A stretch of DNA of 64,000 nt. Origin: Candidatus Tanganyikabacteria bacterium (GTDB lineage: Bacteria > Cyanobacteriota > Sericytochromatia > S15B-MN24 > VGJW01). The stretch is taken from NCBI GenBank assembly GCA_016867265.1, contig VGJW01000007.1, positions 62,001-126,000 of the forward strand, read 5' to 3'. The notes under the pieces are model-generated. The model searched no databases and was not told where the DNA came from. It saw nothing but the letters and a program-made list of their open reading frames with translations. This document shows positions 51,284 to 58,160 of the stretch, piece after piece. Position 1 is the stretch's first letter. Every line of letters starts with the position of its first letter. Made by a program: the position numbers and the translations under genes.

Positions 51284-51745
51284 TCAGGGCAGTCGGTCCA
51301 GAGCCTCGCTGATCGCCATGTAGGATGTGGCCCCCAGGAACCGTGCCTTCGGACGTCCCTCGCGATCCAGGACCAGAAAGGTCGGCGTGACCCTCGCCCG
51401 GGCAGCCTCGAGGACGGCCACGGCATCCGCGGAGGTCGATGCTTCGTCCAGATAGAGGACGCGGAAGGTCACCTCGCGTCCACGCCTTGCCTCGAGCAGG
51501 TGCCAGACCGGCACCATCGCGATGCAGGCCGGTCAGGTGTGCGTCGCGACCTCGACGACCGCCGGGCGGCCCCTTGGCAGGTCCACGACACCGCGCAAGC
51601 CCGTCACCCCATTCAAGTCGGCAGAACTCTGGGGTCCGAGGAATCGCCACAGCACGTAAACCAGCACGGCCCAACCCGCAGCATCCCAGACCCGACCCAG
51701 GCGAGTACGCCAACCCACGGTCACGCCCTGAGCCTCATGCGCCAT
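51284..51745 (-). CDS. Membrane-anchored thioredoxin-like protein with in-frame TGA at the active site (candidate selenoprotein)
   Basis: Read through one TGA, the frame encodes 153 residues. An N-terminal anchor has the hydrophobic run WAVLVYVLWRFL. A strand PAVVEVATHT precedes the active site, then (TGA)-Pro-Ala-Cys, then IAMVPVWHLLEARRG, FRVLYLDE, the cis-Pro segment RVTPTFLVLDREG and a final helix. This is the full thioredoxin order, and the TGA (51533-51535, codon 71) sits exactly at the first Cys of CxxC, giving UxxC. A 6-base-pair hairpin with loop GGUCU lies 17 bases downstream. No other stop interrupts the frame, and both flanks keep homology. ATG 51745 overlaps the end of the ABC gene by 11 bases. 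The alternative is TGC/TGT mutated or misread to TGA. Confidence 0.8.
51499..51515 (-). promoter_or_regulatory. SECIS-like hairpin downstream of the in-frame TGA
   Basis: On the minus strand GGTGCC - GGTCT - GGCACC forms a perfect 6-base-pair stem with a five-base loop. The loop GGUCU and the flanking GGU..GC/GCACC match the upper stem-loop of the E. coli fdhF SECIS bound by SelB; the bulged U of that element is absent. It starts 17 bases after the TGA, and the loop lies 23 bases after it, inside the window known for bacterial SECIS elements. Confidence 0.7.
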
Positions 51746-53645
51746 ACAGCAGGGCCTCTCGGGATCCGTGGGCGGCCTCGCCGGCCTGCAACGCCCACAT
51801 CGTGGCGTAGCGCCCACCTGCGGCGAGCAACGTGGCGTGGTCGCCAGACTCGGCAATCCGCCCCTGATGCAGCACGATGATGTGGTCCGCATGGCGAACC
51901 GTGGCCAGGCGATGGGCCACGACCAAGGTCATGGCCCGTCCCTTGCGGGCCTCGATCTGCTGCAGCATCGCCTCTTCCGTGGCACTGTCGACGCTGGCGG
52001 TCGCCTCGTCGAGTACCAGCACGGCCGGGTCGGCGAGCAGGGCGCGCGCAAGGCAGACCAGTTGCCGTTCGCCGGTGGGGAGCGTGTCGCCCCGCTCCCC
52101 CAGCGGCAATGCGAGACCCTCGGGCCATCGCCGCGCCGGGTCCTCACCCAGGAACTGATGCAGCACCTCGAGCAACATCGCGTCCGTGAGGTGCGCGCGG
52201 CCCATGCGCAGGTTCTCGGCCAACGTCCCGCGGAACAGCAGCGGCTCCTGCAGGACCATGCCCAGATGCTGCCGCCAGATCTCGGGCGACCACGCCGTCA
52301 GCGGCGTCTCCCCGACGACGATCCGGCCGCGACCCGGGTCGTGGAAACGGGCCACGAGGCCCAGCAGGCTGCTCTTGCCGGCGCCCGTGGCACCGACGAT
52401 ACCTACCGTCTGGCCGGGCTCGATGGCGAACGACACGTCCTCGAGCACCCACGGGGCATCGGACGCGTAGGCGAAGGACACGCTTTCGAAGCGCAGCCCC
52501 CCCGACCGGATCCCGGCGCCATCGGACAAGTCGCCCGCCCACGGCTCCGCCACGACCGTCGGTTGGGTCTCGCGCAGCTGCACCAGGCGCTCGGTCGAGG
52601 CAAAGGCCGCCAGGGTCGTGTTGTACTTCTCGGACAACTCGCCAAGCGGGTTGAAGAGCTGCTTGAGATAGACCGTCAGGGCGTAGAGCGTGCCCAGGGC
52701 CAAGCCCTGCTCGAGCACCGCCCGTCCGCCAAACCAGAGGACGGCCGCAAGGGCAAGCTGGGTCGCGAGGTCGATGGCCGGACGCAGGATGCCCTGCACG
52801 TGGGTCAGGGTCCACGCCGTGCCATAGAAAGCCTCGGCTTCCTCGCGGAAGGCTTCCTGGGCGGCGTCCTCGCGTCCGAAGGCCTGCAGCACGCGCACGC
52901 CCGACAAGTGCTCGGACAGGACGGCGACAAGCGCCGCCTGCCGCACCCGCAGACCTCGCCACGAGGCACGCAGCCAGCGGCGGAACCCGAACGTCAGGCC
53001 CGCGATCACCGGGGCTGCCGCGAGGGCGACCCACGCCAGCCCCGCATCCAGGTGGAACAGCGCCCAGATGGTCCCCGCAATGACGAACAGATCCCGGAAC
53101 AGGCCCACGAGCACGCTCGTCACGAGTTCGTTGATGTTCTCGGTGTCCGAGGTGACGCGCGAGACGAGGCGCCCCACCGGCTGGCGGTCGAAGACGGCCA
53201 TGTCCAGCCGCAGCAGATGGCCGAAGGTCTCTTCCCGGATGCGACGGATGACGCGCTGACCCGCGCCCTGGATCACCAGGCCCTGGGCATAGCGCAGGAG
53301 CGACTCCCCGACCAGCAGGCCGAGGTAGAGCAACGCCAGGCCGATCAGGTCCCGAGGCCAGGCCAGCAGCATCGGATCGAGACCGAACGGAAGCTGGGGT
53401 GGCGGTGCAGCCGAGGCGCCTGTCCCGCCCAGCGGGCCGTCGATGGCCTGCTTGACGATCCAGGGCAATAACACGGGAACGGCGCTGAGCGGGACGAGCA
53501 TCAGCAAGCCCAACAACAACCATGCCGCAACGGGACGAGCCCACGTCAGGACATGCCGGAACAACCTCGGGTCGAAGGCCCGCTCGTGGGCCTCCTCGAC
53601 GATGCCGGCATGGCCTGCACCGTGGCCGTGGCCGTGACCACTCAT
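51735..53645 (-). CDS. ABC exporter half-transporter, His-rich N-terminus
   Basis: A 636-residue TMD-NBD protein. The start at 53645 overlaps the partner stop (ATGA) and gives MSGHGHGHGAGHAG, a His/Gly-rich head likely to bind metal. Six membrane segments follow, then the NBD: Walker A GIVGATGAGKSSLLGL, a deviant signature LPTGERQLVCLARALLA in place of LSGGQ, and Walker B with catalytic Glu VLVLDEATASVD, plus switch His in VVAHRLATV. With the upstream partner it forms a heterodimeric exporter: its Walker A/B serves the working site and its weak signature the degenerate site. Confidence 0.93.
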   Translation of the reverse strand: MSGHGHGHGAGHAGIVEEAHERAFDPRLFRHVLTWARPVAAWLLLGLLMLVPLSAVPVLLPWIVKQAIDGPLGGTGASAAPPPQLPFGLDPMLLAWPRDLIGLALLYLGLLVGESLLRYAQGLVIQGAGQRVIRRIREETFGHLLRLDMAVFDRQPVGRLVSRVTSDTENINELVTSVLVGLFRDLFVIAGTIWALFHLDAGLAWVALAAAPVIAGLTFGFRRWLRASWRGLRVRQAALVAVLSEHLSGVRVLQAFGREDAAQEAFREEAEAFYGTAWTLTHVQGILRPAIDLATQLALAAVLWFGGRAVLEQGLALGTLYALTVYLKQLFNPLGELSEKYNTTLAAFASTERLVQLRETQPTVVAEPWAGDLSDGAGIRSGGLRFESVSFAYASDAPWVLEDVSFAIEPGQTVGIVGATGAGKSSLLGLVARFHDPGRGRIVVGETPLTAWSPEIWRQHLGMVLQEPLLFRGTLAENLRMGRAHLTDAMLLEVLHQFLGEDPARRWPEGLALPLGERGDTLPTGERQLVCLARALLADPAVLVLDEATASVDSATEEAMLQQIEARKGRAMTLVVAHRLATVRHADHIIVLHQGRIAESGDHATLLAAGGRYATMWALQAGEAAHGSREALLYGA

Positions 53646-55432
53646 GCGCCCACCCCCGGAACGGGACCGGCGAGAACCCGCTCCAGCTGTTGCAGGTGCC
53701 ACATCCGGGCATAGAGGCCACCCTGCGCGACCAGGGCATCGTGGCTGCCATCGCCGACGAGCCTGCCTTCGTCGAGGACCAGGATGCGGGGTGCCGTCCG
53801 GACGACGCTCAAGCGGTGCGCGACGATCAGCGCCGACCGATCACGGCGGGCTTCGCCCAAGGTCGCGAGGACACGGTGCTCGGTGGCGGCATCGACCGCA
53901 GACAGCGCATCGTCCACCAACAGGACCGGCGCCTCGCGGACCAGGGCCCGGGCCAGGCAAACCCGCTGGCGCTGGCCACCCGAGAGCGTGACGCCACGTT
54001 CGCCCACCACCGCGCGCTCGGCCTCAGGCCACAACGCCAGGTCGGGCCCCAAGCCCGCGCGGAGCAGGGCCGGCATGACGCCTGACGCGTCTTCCCCCAT
54101 CGCGACGTTCTCGGCAATGGATCGGCCCAGCAAGAAGCCTTCCTGCGGGACCCACGCAAAGACCCGACGCACCTCGTCCACGGCCATCTCGCCCAGATCG
54201 CGGCCATCGAGCAGCAGTGACCCCGGGCGGGCATCAAGCTGACGCAACAAGAGCGAGACGAGCGTGCTCTTGCCCGCCCCGGACCGACCGGTCACGCCCA
54301 GTATCTGGCCCGGGGCCAGGACGAAGGAGACGTCCGCCAGCGCAGGCCGATGGGCGCCAGGATACCCGAAGGTCAGATTCCGAACCTCGAGCGTAGGCGG
54401 GGCAGCCAGCCACCAGCCTGGCTCAAGCCGGTGCATGGCGGGGGGCTCGGGGGTCTCCCGGAACAGTTCTCGCAGGCGCACGACGCTCGCCCGGGCGCGC
54501 TGGGCCATGTTGTAGGCCCAGCTCATCGCCATCATCGGCCACGAGAGCATCTGGATAAACCCGAGGAAGGAGACCAGTTGCCCGACGGTCAAGGCGCCAG
54601 CCTCGACAAGCCGGCCGCCGTGAATCAGGACAAGGACGGTCGAGGAGCCCGACAACAGGGCGATCAGGGGATCGAAGGCGCCCTGCATCCGCACCATCCT
54701 CATGGTGGCGGCGGCGTGGTCCCGGCTGCGCGCCGCGAACTCCTCCGTCGCCCCGGCCTCCCGGGCGAAGCCCTTGACGACGCGAATGCTCGAGATCGTC
54801 GTTTGGGCCTGGTCGCTCAGGCGCCCGAAGGCCTCCTGCACGGCCCGGTAGGTCCCGTGCATCCGCCGCCCCAACAAGAAGGAGACGAGGCCCAGCAGGG
54901 GTAAGGGCAGGACCGCCCAGAGCGTCAGGCCCGGATGGAGCCAGAGCATCGGCAGAAGCGCCGACATCAGGTAGAACGGGGCATCGAGCCCGGCCATCAC
55001 CCCTTCGCCGGCAATGGCGCGGACGGCCTGCAGATCATTGGTGGCCAGGGCCATGACCTCGCCGGTTGGCCTGCGCCGCTGGGCCTCCGCCGGCAGGCGA
55101 ATGACATGGTCATGCAAGGCAACCCGGACGTCGCGCTCGATGCGGCGCGACGATCCGAAGACCCCCATGCGCCAGCCGTAGCGGCACAAGGCGACAAACA
55201 ACGCGAGGCCCACCAGCATGCCCACGCTGCGCCCCAGCCCGCCCAAGGCCATCGAACCGTCCTTGAGGCCATCGACGATGTGGCCGACCAGCAGGGGCAC
55301 CGCAACCTGGCCCAGGTCACACGCCAAGAGGCAGGCGGCCCCGACGGCGTAGGCCCGGCGCTCACGCCAGAGAAGGCCCCCAAGGATGCCCCAGGGGGTA
55401 CCTTCTCTGAAGGCCCCTGCGAGCGGCTTCAA
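53642..55432 (-). CDS. ABC exporter half-transporter with degenerate catalytic Glu
   Basis: A 596-residue TMD-NBD protein. A TTG start at 55432 overlaps the tldE stop (TTGA); a TTG at 55468 is an alternative. It has six membrane segments, Walker A GVTGRSGAGKSTLVSLL, canonical signature LSGGQRQRVCLARALV and Walker B LLVDDALSAVD, where Asp replaces the catalytic Glu. This is the asymmetry known from TM287/288-type exporters: its own Walker B and the partner's weak LPTGE signature form the same non-hydrolysing site. Substrate unknown; context suggests a peptide. Confidence 0.92.
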   Translation of the reverse strand: MKPLAGAFREGTPWGILGGLLWRERRAYAVGAACLLACDLGQVAVPLLVGHIVDGLKDGSMALGGLGRSVGMLVGLALFVALCRYGWRMGVFGSSRRIERDVRVALHDHVIRLPAEAQRRRPTGEVMALATNDLQAVRAIAGEGVMAGLDAPFYLMSALLPMLWLHPGLTLWAVLPLPLLGLVSFLLGRRMHGTYRAVQEAFGRLSDQAQTTISSIRVVKGFAREAGATEEFAARSRDHAAATMRMVRMQGAFDPLIALLSGSSTVLVLIHGGRLVEAGALTVGQLVSFLGFIQMLSWPMMAMSWAYNMAQRARASVVRLRELFRETPEPPAMHRLEPGWWLAAPPTLEVRNLTFGYPGAHRPALADVSFVLAPGQILGVTGRSGAGKSTLVSLLLRQLDARPGSLLLDGRDLGEMAVDEVRRVFAWVPQEGFLLGRSIAENVAMGEDASGVMPALLRAGLGPDLALWPEAERAVVGERGVTLSGGQRQRVCLARALVREAPVLLVDDALSAVDAATEHRVLATLGEARRDRSALIVAHRLSVVRTAPRILVLDEGRLVGDGSHDALVAQGGLYARMWHLQQLERVLAGPVPGVGA

Positions 55433-56772
55433 CCGGCCGTGACCTGCACGCCGTCCGCCAGAACCCAAGGCAGCAGGGCGGACCCGAAGATGTTCTGCCG
55501 GTCGGAACTGACGGCTTCGATGGCCTGGAGTACGTCGTACAGATTGCCGGAGATCATCGTCTCCTCGACCGGGACACGGTCACCCGAGCCCACCAGGAAA
55601 CCACCCTTGACCACGCCCGAGAACTCGCCCGTAGCCATCTCGACCCGGCCAGCAAAGCGCGGCACGACCAAGGCGCGACCTGCCCTTGCCTCGAGGGCGG
55701 CAGCAGCCTCGTCTCCCCCTGCCATCTCGATGAGCCCGGGCATCAAGACTGGCGGCCCCTTGGCACCGCCTCGGCCATGTCCCGTCGATCCGCACCCGGC
55801 ACGCCGGGCCTCGTAGGCATCGTAGAAGAAACCCTCGAGGATGCCGTCCCGGACCAGGGACAGGGGCTCGATCGCCTGCCCCTCGCGATCGAAAGGCGCG
55901 ATGGCCATGCCGTCGAGCAAGCGCCCCGGATCCCTCAAGCTGACGCAAGAGGCGGCGACCCGCGCACCGAGACGCCCTTGCAGCGGACTGCGTCCCTTGC
56001 GCAGGTTGTCGGCACCGAGCGCGCCGAGCAACGGCTCGAGCAGGATCTCGCCCACGGCATCCGGCGTCAGGAGGACTCGCCCCTTGAAGGTCTCGCCCTT
56101 GCGCGCGCCCAGTGCCCAGAGGGCCTTCTCGGCAAAGCGATCCATCGCGGACAGCAACTCTGCCCGAACCGTTGCCAGGCGATTGCCTGAAGCCCCGTCA
56201 TAGTTGAACGATCCGACCTCGGAGCCGTCGATGGCCATGCCCATCACGAAGCCGGACAGGTCGCTGGTGACATGCGACGCCTCGATGCCGGTGGACGAGG
56301 CAATGGCCACCGCAGCCTCCTCCGCGGAGACACGGATGCCGTCGATGCTCAGGCGGGCATCACGGGCCTTGATGCGGTCGGCAAGGTGGCTGGCCAGCTC
56401 GGCCATGGGACCGAGGCCGAATTCGGACAGTCCGGGATCCCAGTCGTATCTTGGACGAGCCAGCGCTACGGGCTCGGGCAGGTGGTGATGGGCATCGGGA
56501 GGGGCAATCTTCGCCACGGCAAGCGCCTGCCGCACGGCCTCTTCGACGCGTCCCGGCGCGTTGACCGTGACAAAGCCGAAGGACTGACCCGAAAGGACCC
56601 GGACGCCCACGGTGAGCTCCTCGTCCGCCCGGGCCAGGTTCAGGTCGTTCTTCTCGAAGGCGACCTCGCGGGTCCGCCGCGCGACAGCGAAGACCTCGAC
56701 ACCTTCGGCACCCACCGCGCGGGCAGCCGCCACGCCTGTCGCACAGACCTCACGGACCAGATCCGTATTCAT
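55429..56772 (-). CDS. tldE: TldE/PmbA subunit of the TldD-TldE protease
   Basis: A 447-residue member of the TldD/PmbA family lacking the HExxxH motif, as expected for TldE. Family marks are VEVFAVARRTREVAFEKNDL, RVLSGQSFGFVTVN, GRVLLTPDAVGEILLEPLL, and the C-terminal FSGVVKGGFLVGSGDRVPVEETMISG. The heterodimer with TldD degrades unfolded or leader peptides and matures some modified peptides such as microcin B17. The start at 56772 overlaps the tldD stop (ATGA). Confidence 0.94.
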   Translation of the reverse strand: MNTDLVREVCATGVAAARAVGAEGVEVFAVARRTREVAFEKNDLNLARADEELTVGVRVLSGQSFGFVTVNAPGRVEEAVRQALAVAKIAPPDAHHHLPEPVALARPRYDWDPGLSEFGLGPMAELASHLADRIKARDARLSIDGIRVSAEEAAVAIASSTGIEASHVTSDLSGFVMGMAIDGSEVGSFNYDGASGNRLATVRAELLSAMDRFAEKALWALGARKGETFKGRVLLTPDAVGEILLEPLLGALGADNLRKGRSPLQGRLGARVAASCVSLRDPGRLLDGMAIAPFDREGQAIEPLSLVRDGILEGFFYDAYEARRAGCGSTGHGRGGAKGPPVLMPGLIEMAGGDEAAAALEARAGRALVVPRFAGRVEMATGEFSGVVKGGFLVGSGDRVPVEETMISGNLYDVLQAIEAVSSDRQNIFGSALLPWVLADGVQVTAG

Positions 56773-58160
56773 GCGCCCACCCCGCCAATCAGGACTTCGC
56801 AGCGCACATACGGGCCGCCGGCATCCACCTTCATGGGTTGCCCCTTGCCGCAATGGCCCGAACCCAAGTCCCAGCGGAACGCCTTGGAGATCGCGTCCAC
56901 GCTGGCCAAGACCTCGAAGGCAGAACCCGAGACCGTGGCACCCTTGAGCACCTCGCCCAGCTTGCCCTTGCGGATGCGGTGCGCCCGGGCGACGGCAAAC
57001 ATGAACTCTCCCGTCGCATCGGCTTGGCCATTCAGGGGGCCGTCCAGAAGGAAGCCGTCCTCGACCTCGGCGATCATCTCGTCGAGGTCCCGATCACCGG
57101 GCTCGATGTAGGTATTGCGCATGCGGATGAGGGGCTCGTCGGCATATTCCCAGGCTCGGGAATTGCCCGTGGGCGCCACGCCGTAATGCATGGCCGACTC
57201 GCGGCTGTGCAGGTAACTGGAGAGGATGCCTTGGTCGATGACCACGGTGCGACCGGCCACCACGCCCTCGTCATCGACGGCGATCGTGCCACCTGCACCC
57301 CCCACGTGCTCCGAAGCACCCGAATCGCACAACGTCACCAGATCACTGGCCACGCGCGTTCCGATTCGACCCGCGGCAACCGATCCCGACTGTACGAAGT
57401 CCGCCTCGACCGTGTGGCCGATGGCCTCATGCACCAGCAAGCCCACGATGCTGGGTGCGAGGATGACCTTGAACTTGCCACCCGGGGCCATCGAGGCGGT
57501 GGAGAGATCGACGGCCCAGCGTGCCGCTTCGTCGGCCATCGAGGCATGGTCCCTGTGGCGGAACAAACAGTCCCATCCCCCCGTCGCGCCATAGCTCTCC
57601 GTACACGTGGCGCGCTCGGTCCCCTGGGCGACGACGGCATTGACGCGAAATTCAGGCCGTACAAGCCGTACTTCGGCGCTTGCCCCGTCCGAGGTCACGA
57701 TGACCTTGTCCTCAAACAACTCCTGGTAGGTGGCACGGGCCGTTTCAATCCTCGTCGAGCTGGCCCGGGCACGAGCCTCGGCATCGATGGCCACCTGGAT
57801 CTTGGCTTCGAGAGGCTGATCCTGCAGCTCGCGGACTCCCGGTTCCTCGAAGCGACCACGAGCCAGGTGCACGGCGGGCAGGTCTCCGAGGCGACGGCTG
57901 CGGTAATTGGCGGATGCCCGCGCGGCAGACACGGCCTGATCGACGGCCCGGCGGATGGCCGGTTCGCTCGTGTCGCTGGTGGCGGCGACGCCCCAGGTGC
58001 CTCCCTCGAGCACGCGCACGCCTACCCCGGCACGCTCCTTGACCAAGGCGGCCTCGAGACGCCCGCCCTCGACATCGAAGCGACGCGAAGTCTTGTGGTG
58101 GTAACGCAGCTCGATGAAGCCGCCGTGCTGGCCGGCGATCCGTTCGAGGGTGTCGCGCAT
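56769..58160 (-). CDS. tldD: TldD metalloprotease subunit
   Basis: A 463-residue catalytic subunit. The zinc motif HExxxH is in LLVHEAIGHTVEADFV, and the third ligand Cys lies in DLGSGHCGKGQPMKVDAGG. Other marks are RAGVGVRVLEGGTWGVAAT near the N-terminus and YIEPGDRDLDEMIAEVEDG. GAGG and AGGAAAAGAGG lie before the ATG. It heads the minus-strand run tldD-tldE-ABC-ABC-thioredoxin-like, joined throughout by 4- to 11-base overlaps. Confidence 0.95.
   Translation of the reverse strand: MRDTLERIAGQHGGFIELRYHHKTSRRFDVEGGRLEAALVKERAGVGVRVLEGGTWGVAATSDTSEPAIRRAVDQAVSAARASANYRSRRLGDLPAVHLARGRFEEPGVRELQDQPLEAKIQVAIDAEARARASSTRIETARATYQELFEDKVIVTSDGASAEVRLVRPEFRVNAVVAQGTERATCTESYGATGGWDCLFRHRDHASMADEAARWAVDLSTASMAPGGKFKVILAPSIVGLLVHEAIGHTVEADFVQSGSVAAGRIGTRVASDLVTLCDSGASEHVGGAGGTIAVDDEGVVAGRTVVIDQGILSSYLHSRESAMHYGVAPTGNSRAWEYADEPLIRMRNTYIEPGDRDLDEMIAEVEDGFLLDGPLNGQADATGEFMFAVARAHRIRKGKLGEVLKGATVSGSAFEVLASVDAISKAFRWDLGSGHCGKGQPMKVDAGGPYVRCEVLIGGVGA

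What the first reader, a model, noticed from the sequence alone, without database searches (positions are those of the whole stretch)
51284..51745. Candidate selenoprotein: thioredoxin-like UxxC protein with an fdhF-like SECIS
Seen: one in-frame TGA (51533-51535) replaces the first Cys of the thioredoxin CxxC, with fold homology on both sides in the same frame. On the mRNA, GGUGCC-GGUCU-GGCACC begins 17 bases later. Known: bacterial SECIS elements lie just downstream of UGA inside the coding region, and the E. coli fdhF element has a GGUCU apical loop recognised by SelB; UxxC thioredoxin-like selenoproteins are documented. Inference: codon 71 is read as selenocysteine in a membrane-anchored redox protein at the end of a tldD-tldE-ABC exporter operon. 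The glutathione peroxidase in the window uses Cys, so this would be a selective use of Sec. Several single-base errors or lesions elsewhere in the window keep a misread TGC or TGT possible.
Basis: partly seen in the sequence, partly recalled or inferred. Interest (0 to 1): 0.9.

Follow-up and report, generated by a model that had tools for sequence, protein, structure and literature searches.

The report
Selenocysteine-containing membrane thioredoxin in Sericytochromatia
An internal stop codon in a membrane-anchored thioredoxin-like gene is very probably read as the rare amino acid selenocysteine, in a non-photosynthetic relative of cyanobacteria that carries the genes needed to make and insert it.

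Summary
Observation confirmed, interpretation supported. On the minus strand, 51745-51284 is one frame of 153 codons; TGA codon 71 stands where thioredoxins have the first Cys of CxxC (UPAC), and a 6-bp GGUCU-loop hairpin starts 17 nt downstream. The genome (98.2% complete) has selA next to selB, a tRNA-Sec, and a selD with its own TGA. Four strong members of the family were found, this gene included: the two in genomes with selA and a strong tRNA-Sec hit have TGA here, the two in genomes without have Cys. A misread base is therefore very unlikely. AhpC/TSA matches with an internal TGA: 13 of 78 in selA-positive genomes, 0 of 19 in selA-negative ones. The window's hairpin alone is not significant once the protein is fixed (p 0.06-0.13). 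UxxC thioredoxin-like selenoproteins are a known kind. The host is the news: surveys say Cyanobacteria lack the trait, and no paper in the open-access library held both selenocysteine and Sericytochromatia. The cellular role is inferred; there is no protein evidence.

The parts
51284..51745 (-). Thioredoxin-like selenoprotein gene, 153 codons including Sec71; ATG start, TGA stop
   Evidence: translation; homology spans both sides of the TGA in one frame (query residues 9-150 against G006)
51533..51535 (-). In-frame TGA, codon 71, read as selenocysteine; first position of the UPAC active-site motif
   Evidence: Cys in G006, G009 and two Methanolobus homologues, TGA in G008
51524..51526 (-). TGC, Cys74, the resolving cysteine of UPAC (role by analogy with thioredoxins)
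   Evidence: Invariant in the four-sequence alignment A1
51499..51515 (-). Apical SECIS hairpin GGUGCC-GGUCU-GGCACC, stem 6 bp, loop 51505-51509
   Evidence: absent from the best fold of 40, 45 and 70 nt
51480..51532 (-). Longer bulged stem predicted around the apical hairpin
   Evidence: Minimum-free-energy fold of 60 nt; no covariation test was made
51632..51682 (-). N-terminal hydrophobic segment, residues 22-38 (AAGWAVLVYVLWRFLGP), probable signal anchor
   Evidence: Hydropathy 1.31 over 17 residues, lowest of four homologues; net charge before it +1; modelled as helix 9-36
51383..51388 (-). Thr120-Pro121, the cis-proline position of thioredoxin folds
   Evidence: Invariant TPT in alignment A1; the role of the cis-Pro is recalled knowledge
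51735..53702 (-). ABC exporter half, MsbA/SmdB-like; its end overlaps the thioredoxin start by 11 nt
   Evidence: NCBIfam matches down to 7e-103, those shown all below their curated cut-offs; junction read
53642..55468 (-). ABC exporter half, SmdA-like; ATGA overlap with the next gene
   Evidence: NF008055 2.9e-122, below its cut-off; junction
55429..56853 (-). TldE/PmbA-like protease gene (frame as listed; a start overlapping the tldD stop as ATGA is likelier)
   Evidence: NF008268 8.1e-21, below its cut-off; junction
56769..58160 (-). TldD-like protease gene
   Evidence: NF040952 1.2e-78, below its cut-off

Best explanation
The gene encodes a membrane-anchored thioredoxin-like selenoprotein. 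Ser-tRNA-Sec is converted by SelA using selenophosphate from SelD; SelB carries Sec-tRNA to the ribosome by binding the hairpin just after UGA 71, and UGA is read as selenocysteine, giving the redox pair Sec71-x-x-Cys74 (mechanism from established knowledge of the bacterial Sec pathway). An N-terminal hydrophobic segment probably anchors the protein with the thioredoxin domain outside the cytoplasmic membrane, where it would reduce disulfides or selenenylsulfides, drawing electrons from a CcdA-type membrane protein. Shown by sequence: the frame, the TGA/Cys column, the machinery, the hairpin letters, the overlapping gene run tldD-tldE-ABC-ABC-trx. Inferred: actual Sec insertion, topology, CcdA as donor, substrate. 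The confidence given is for Sec insertion; the extracytoplasmic thiol reductase role is about 0.6.
For: Own genome G000 (98.2% complete, 0.34% contamination): selB over cut-off, with a second match to the C-terminal end of the model; selA 3.1e-131, its frame ending where selB's begins; tRNA-Sec 69.3 bits, called tRNA-SeC(tca) by ARAGORN; selD 1.3e-102 with one TGA at SGGUAAK. Homologues: of 194 related genomes 21 match at E <= 0.001, four strongly (E below 1e-10): G000 TGA, G008 TGA, G006 TGC, G009 TGC. SelA over cut-off in 7 of 39 genomes; tRNA-Sec hits of 67-72 bits in the same seven, of 20 searched; G000 and G008 are among them, G006 and G009 are not. AhpC/TSA matches with one TGA: 13 of 78 in the seven selA-positive genomes, 0 of 1 in G003 (64% complete), 0 of 19 in selA-negative G005, G006, G009. 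The G008 gene has a GGUCC-loop hairpin, synonymous-recoding p 0.010 and 0.005; none of five Cys homologues has a GU-loop stem of more than 2 pairs. Thioredoxin fold: AlphaFold mean pLDDT 73.6, Foldseek best hit a thioredoxin (E 1.5e-6), profile hit in the PDB 2.8e-10. CcdA-type gene in the genome; a Methanolobus homologue lies directly before a CcdA-like frame (named by eye).
Against: No protein or transcript data. The window's hairpin is not significant by itself when the amino acids are held fixed (p 0.063; 0.127), is missing from the best fold at 3 of 6 lengths tried, and its 60-nt fold is only 1.47 sd below shuffles. Codon-usage scoring did not single this TGA out: not among the best 15 of 307 TGA with at least 40 open codons each side, though antisense frames of this GC-rich genome score as coding too. 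One Cys homologue (G006) also has a 5-bp hairpin with a G-starting loop, GCUCU, 34 nt down. Five of the seven selA-positive genomes have no homologue at E <= 0.001 (G001, G002, G004, G007, G010). Pfam Thioredoxin_2 score 19.9 is under the gathering score 27. The anchor's hydropathy is low (1.31). CcdA is on another contig. selB was not searched for in the relatives.
Confidence: 0.93

Rival explanations
1. Pseudogene: a nonsense mutation has broken a Cys thioredoxin gene and the hairpin is chance.
For: The hairpin alone is compatible with chance given the protein.
Against: The frame is open for 82 codons after the TGA and keeps the TPT and GxTS motifs; a genome of another family has TGA at the same codon; the cell has the Sec machinery.
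Confidence: 0.03
2. Sequencing or assembly error of TGC/TGT.
Against: The same codon reads TGA in G008, which has selA, a strong tRNA-Sec hit and selD; G006 and G009, which lack selA over cut-off and a strong tRNA-Sec hit, read TGC.
Confidence: 0.01
3. UGA is read by ordinary suppression or as Trp rather than by SelB.
For: None found.
Against: The gene's own stop and the stops of the four genes before it are TGA; the internal TGA replaces a catalytic Cys, not a Trp; a tRNA-Sec exists.
Confidence: 0.01
4. Sec is inserted, but the protein is not an extracytoplasmic CcdA-linked reductase: it could be cytoplasmic, or serve as an oxidase or isomerase tied to the TldDE/ABC exporter cargo.
For: The anchor is weakly hydrophobic in this species; the gene sits in a tldD-tldE-ABC-ABC run, not by ccdA.
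Against: All four homologues have an N-terminal hydrophobic stretch, hydropathy 1.3-2.3; a distant archaeal homologue is adjacent to a CcdA-like frame; the tldD-tldE-ABC run is not around the homologues in G006, G008, G009.
Confidence: 0.35

Closest known systems
Thiol:disulfide interchange protein selenoprotein family (PF13098, UxxC), listed in PMC9312934 and PMC13188914 (table passages read)
   Same: UxxC at the thioredoxin active site; best Pfam hit of this protein is PF13098
   Different: Own score is below the Pfam gathering score (19.9 vs 27); host is a non-photosynthetic cyanobacterial relative
Thioredoxin selenoprotein (PF00085, UxxC), same two reviews
   Same: Fold and active-site position
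   Different: Probable membrane anchor; 16.2 bits against 96.8 needed for NCBIfam thioredoxin
TxlA/HCF164-type membrane thioredoxins of cyanobacteria and chloroplasts (names recalled; leads are the weak matches L024, L025, L027)
   Same: N-terminal hydrophobic stretch plus thioredoxin domain (read by eye); HCF164 works with CcdA (recalled; search listing only)
   Different: Cys active site (WCTTC/WCTSC), 28-31% identity
CcdA-adjacent thioredoxin-like protein of Methanolobus (L068, L069)
   Same: CPACIA motif, N-terminal hydrophobic stretch, thioredoxin domain, 28-31% identity
   Different: Cys; archaeal; the next frame in L068 looks like ccdA (by eye)
E. coli fdhF SECIS (recalled)
   Same: GGUCU apical loop at similar distance from the UGA
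   Different: No bulged U in the upper stem here

Membership tests
Bacterial selenoprotein | In-frame UGA with homology on both sides in the same frame | tested here: met
Bacterial selenoprotein | UGA aligns with a redox Cys in homologues | tested here: met
   Cys in G006, G009 and two Methanolobus loci; TGA in G008
Bacterial selenoprotein | SelA, SelB, tRNA-Sec and SelD in the genome | tested here: met
Bacterial selenoprotein | Hairpin with a G-containing small apical loop 16-37 nt after UGA | tested here: met
   Loop GGUCU starts 24 nt after UGA; significance alone weak and not in the best fold at every length
Bacterial selenoprotein | SelB of this organism binds the hairpin | not testable with these tools
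   Needs a binding or reporter assay
Bacterial selenoprotein | Selenium or Sec found in the protein | not testable with these tools
   Needs 75Se labelling or mass spectrometry
Thioredoxin-fold oxidoreductase | Thioredoxin fold with the two-residue-spaced active site and cis-Pro loop | tested here: met
Pfam PF13098 Thioredoxin_2 | Score above the gathering score | tested here: not met
   19.9 against 27 bits for this protein; the G009 Cys homologue passes with 38.3 bits
NCBIfam thioredoxin TIGR01068 | Score above the curated cut-off | tested here: not met
   16.2 against 96.8 bits
Sec-specific NCBIfam thioredoxin-like models (e.g. SaoT NF040730, HUIPC NF047660) | Any match at E up to 1 | tested here: not met
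   Only TIGR01068 listed; the program's filters drop most matches above about 0.1
CcdA-linked extracytoplasmic reductase (TlpA/ResA/HCF164 type) | Membrane anchor and CcdA in the genome | tested here: inconclusive
   Anchor weak; CcdA-type gene on another contig

The most novel reading that the evidence does not exclude
Selenocysteine decoding was present in the common ancestor of Sericytochromatia and perhaps of the wider cyanobacterial lineage, served several redox enzymes (this thioredoxin-like protein, peroxiredoxins, SelD, other UxxC proteins), and was lost in many descendants, including on the way to oxygenic Cyanobacteria, with Sec replaced by Cys (as G006 and G009 may show).
Probability: 0.35. 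Interest if true: 0.65.

Novelty: new member of a known kind. Interest (0 to 1): 0.5.

Why it matters
[quoted passage not shown] a 2022 review repeats the absence (PMC9312934, passage read). Here selA over cut-off is found in 7 of the 18 genomes of the window's class that the relatives search returned, with several kinds of TGA gene, one of which has TGA in selA-positive and Cys in selA-negative relatives. That makes gain or loss of selenocysteine next to the origin of oxygenic photosynthesis testable. Ordinary gene calling would probably see only a 77-aa fragment from an internal ATG (such a frame is listed), or miss the gene.

Tried and rejected
Codon-usage scoring of TGA codons: not informative; the candidate was not in the best 15 of 307. 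Rfam scan of the window at gathering scores: 0 matches. Protein search of plasmid records: none. Single-sequence scan of genome contigs: 592 pattern matches, no relative; the alignment-based scan gave 4 loci, two of them the G009 and G008 genes already in hand. Formate dehydrogenase alpha (TIGR01553) as a further Sec gene: 0 of 20 genomes over the cut-off, and no listed match with an internal stop; most matches are partial, so a Sec-FdhA is not evident rather than excluded. Conserved neighbours of the thioredoxin gene: not seen; G006, G008 and G009 have other neighbours, judged by eye from frames. Limits: the loop rule ([ACG]GU plus 1-3 bases) was set after seeing the hairpins, so its combined Fisher p (7.7e-14 for 21 genes) overstates the case; 15 of 23 TGA genes reach p below 0.05 and 8 do not (Trx_G000, SelD_G001, five peroxiredoxin-type genes, one UGGC gene). 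SelD of G004 and G010 were left out of that count because the script missed their position; both have TGA. Of the 17 weak matches, I translated three. Published SECIS search programs were not available. The deep-Sep paper PMC12013277 held none of my four search words.

Full report
THE OBSERVATION. The minus strand of 51284-51745 is one frame of 153 codons from ATG to TGA, broken by a single TGA at 51533-51535, codon 71. Translated through, the active-site stretch reads THT-U-PACIAM. On the mRNA, 17 bases after the TGA, stands GGUGCC-GGUCU-GGCACC. Folding 60 nt gives this hairpin as the tip of a bulged stem, -26.9 kcal/mol, z -1.47, 17 of 200 shuffles as good. At 50 and 55 nt it is also in the best fold; at 40, 45 and 70 nt another fold wins.

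THE MACHINERY. The window lies in a 2.85-Mb genome, 41 contigs, 98.2% complete, 0.34% contaminated. It has selB (325 bits, cut-off 242) with selA directly before it on contig C25 (both frames), a tRNA-Sec on contig C11 (69.3 bits; ARAGORN tRNA-SeC, anticodon tca) and selD on C1. SelD itself has an in-frame TGA at the position I take as catalytic, SGG-U-AAK (PMC13188914 lists UxxK for SelD).

HOMOLOGUES AND THE TGA/CYS COLUMN. Searching 194 related genomes with the protein gave matches in 21. Four are strong, E below 1e-10: the window's own gene and genes in G008, G006 and G009, all of one order. G008 has TGA at the same codon; G006 and G009 have TGC. The other 17 are weak, none with a stop inside; the three that I translated look like cyanobacterial membrane thioredoxin-like proteins with Cys. 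Over 39 genomes SelA passes its cut-off in seven: G000, G001, G002, G004, G007, G008, G010; G009 has a match below the cut-off (18.9 against 22.8 bits). Over 20 genomes, tRNA-Sec hits of 67-72 bits occur in the same seven; three others pass the 47-bit gathering score at 47-50 bits, the level at which two tRNA-Ser genes of the window's genome also score. SelD passes its cut-off in 8 of 20: those seven and G003, which is 64% complete; seven of the eight have TGA and G008 has Cys. So TGA goes with the machinery and Cys with its absence in the four strong members, one of which is the gene in question. selB was not searched for in the relatives.

IDENTITY OF THE HOST. G009's contig C14 (573,184 bases) has the length of DAZV01000026.1, Candidatus Sericytochromatia bacterium S15B-MN24 CBMW_12, and carries the same gene; G008's contig C123 (12,935 bases) likewise JAQBPE010000294.1, Cyanobacteria bacterium RYN_339. 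Both are in the window genome's order, so the host belongs with Sericytochromatia, a class that NCBI places in the Cyanobacteriota/Melainabacteria group. No tool names the host itself.

OTHER TGA GENES. In 11 genomes AhpC/TSA (PF00578) gave 98 matches; 13 of 78 in the seven selA-positive genomes contain one TGA, 0 of 1 in G003, 0 of 19 in the selA-negative G005, G006 and G009. Thioredoxin_2 (PF13098) gave 49 matches; one TGA in 3 of 33 in selA-positive genomes (one of them the same place as a PF00578 match), 1 of 2 in G003, 0 of 14 in selA-negative ones; the window's own gene was not among the two G000 matches there. I fetched all 16 distinct places with a TGA; by eye each TGA sits at a redox position (TPGU, TPVU, SPHU, UGHC, UGGC, ULFC, UMFC). 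The window's genome therefore has at least four TGA genes: this one, selD, a peroxiredoxin 6 kb from selB (C25:16696-17067) and a UGHC protein (C4:79977-80333).

THE HAIRPINS. Loops of many of the TGA genes share a GU: GGUCU (window), GGUCC (G008), GGUUC, GGUCC, GGUGC or CGUGC (SelD), AGUU (UGHC-type and two more), CGUGA or CGUGAC (others). Against synonymous recodings 15 of 23 reach p below 0.05; 0 of 5 Cys homologues do. The rule was chosen after seeing the data. For the window gene p is 0.127 under this rule and 0.063 under the narrower GGUCY rule; for the G008 gene 0.005 and 0.010; the two combined under the broader rule give 0.0056. In the Cys-type SelD of G008 the stem that the Sec forms have is broken. 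Peroxiredoxins with TPGU, SPHU or TPVU in G000, G001 (L120), G007, G008 and G010 show no such hairpin, which I cannot explain; their elements may have another form.

WHAT THE PROTEIN IS. Profile search of the PDB with the four homologues finds thioredoxins (2.8e-10), with position 71 on the first active-site Cys. AlphaFold with three sequences gives mean pLDDT 73.6 and a thioredoxin fold behind an N-terminal helix 9-36; Foldseek's best hits are thioredoxins. All four homologues have a hydrophobic N-terminal stretch, 1.3 to 2.3 in hydropathy, lowest here. A CcdA-type gene exists in the genome, and the Methanolobus homologue L068 is followed at once by a CcdA-like frame (by eye). I infer an extracytoplasmic thiol:disulfide reductase.

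CONTEXT. The gene is last in a run tldD-tldE-ABC-ABC-trx on one strand with overlapping or touching ends. The family scores shown for these neighbours are below the curated cut-offs, so names are by likeness. The run is not seen around the homologues in G006, G008 or G009, so a link to TldDE or the exporter is only a suggestion.

DESCENT. An unrooted SelA tree of seven splits the window's family (G000, G001, G002, G004) from G007, G008 and G010 with 99/98 support, in line with kinship; the SelD tree has a long G000 branch and is not decisive. No outside sequences were included.

PRIOR WORK. PMC1794560 (passages): trait not detected in Cyanobacteria. PMC9312934 (passages): same, and a table of families with UxxC thioredoxin-likes. 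PMC13188914 (passages): current family table; the word stem cyanobacteri does not occur in its main text. PMC5029168 (passages): in its two places with cyanobacteri, only orphan SelD in Prochlorococcus. PMC9529120 (passages) reports one Sec residue in a Candidatus Melainabacteria protein, PWT95605.1, so selenocysteine in the wider group is not wholly unreported. Searches: selenocysteine with Sericytochromatia, 0 papers; selenoprotein, cyanobacteria and Sericytochromatia, two of three required, 327 papers of which the 20 listed held no paper with both selenoprotein and Sericytochromatia; selenocysteine with Melainabacteria, 5 papers, passages read of one; two broader searches seen as listings only. 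The library is open-access only.

Noticed in passing
L118 (G000 C25:16696-17067): Peroxiredoxin-like gene with TGA at the TPGC position, about 6 kb after selB in the same genome; no GU-loop hairpin found after its TGA.
   Followed up: partly
L119 (G000 C4:79977-80333, minus): Redoxin-like gene with UGHC motif and a 7-bp hairpin with AGUU loop after the TGA; a like gene is in G001 (L121).
   Followed up: partly
L018 (G000 C1:190252-191181) and L070 (G008): SelD has TGA at its active-site position in 7 of 8 genomes; in G008 it is Cys and the downstream stem is broken.
   Followed up: yes
L118, L120, L123, L125, L127: TPGU/SPHU/TPVU peroxiredoxin genes lack the GU-loop hairpin that most other TGA genes show 14-40 nt downstream; their SECIS may differ.
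   Followed up: no
L131, L132, L133: A thioredoxin_2 protein with UGGC and a hairpin loop CGUGAC in three genomes, in the codons of TVTYP; possibly a separate selenoprotein family.
   Followed up: partly
L068 and L069: Methanolobus thioredoxin-like proteins with CPACIA are the only named homologues outside the class that the genome-contig scan gave; in L068 a CcdA-like frame follows directly.
   Followed up: partly
   Followed up: no
L046 7130-9863: The G009 Cys homologue overlaps the end of an MMPL/RND-like transporter frame (named by eye); again next to a transporter, of another type.
   Followed up: no
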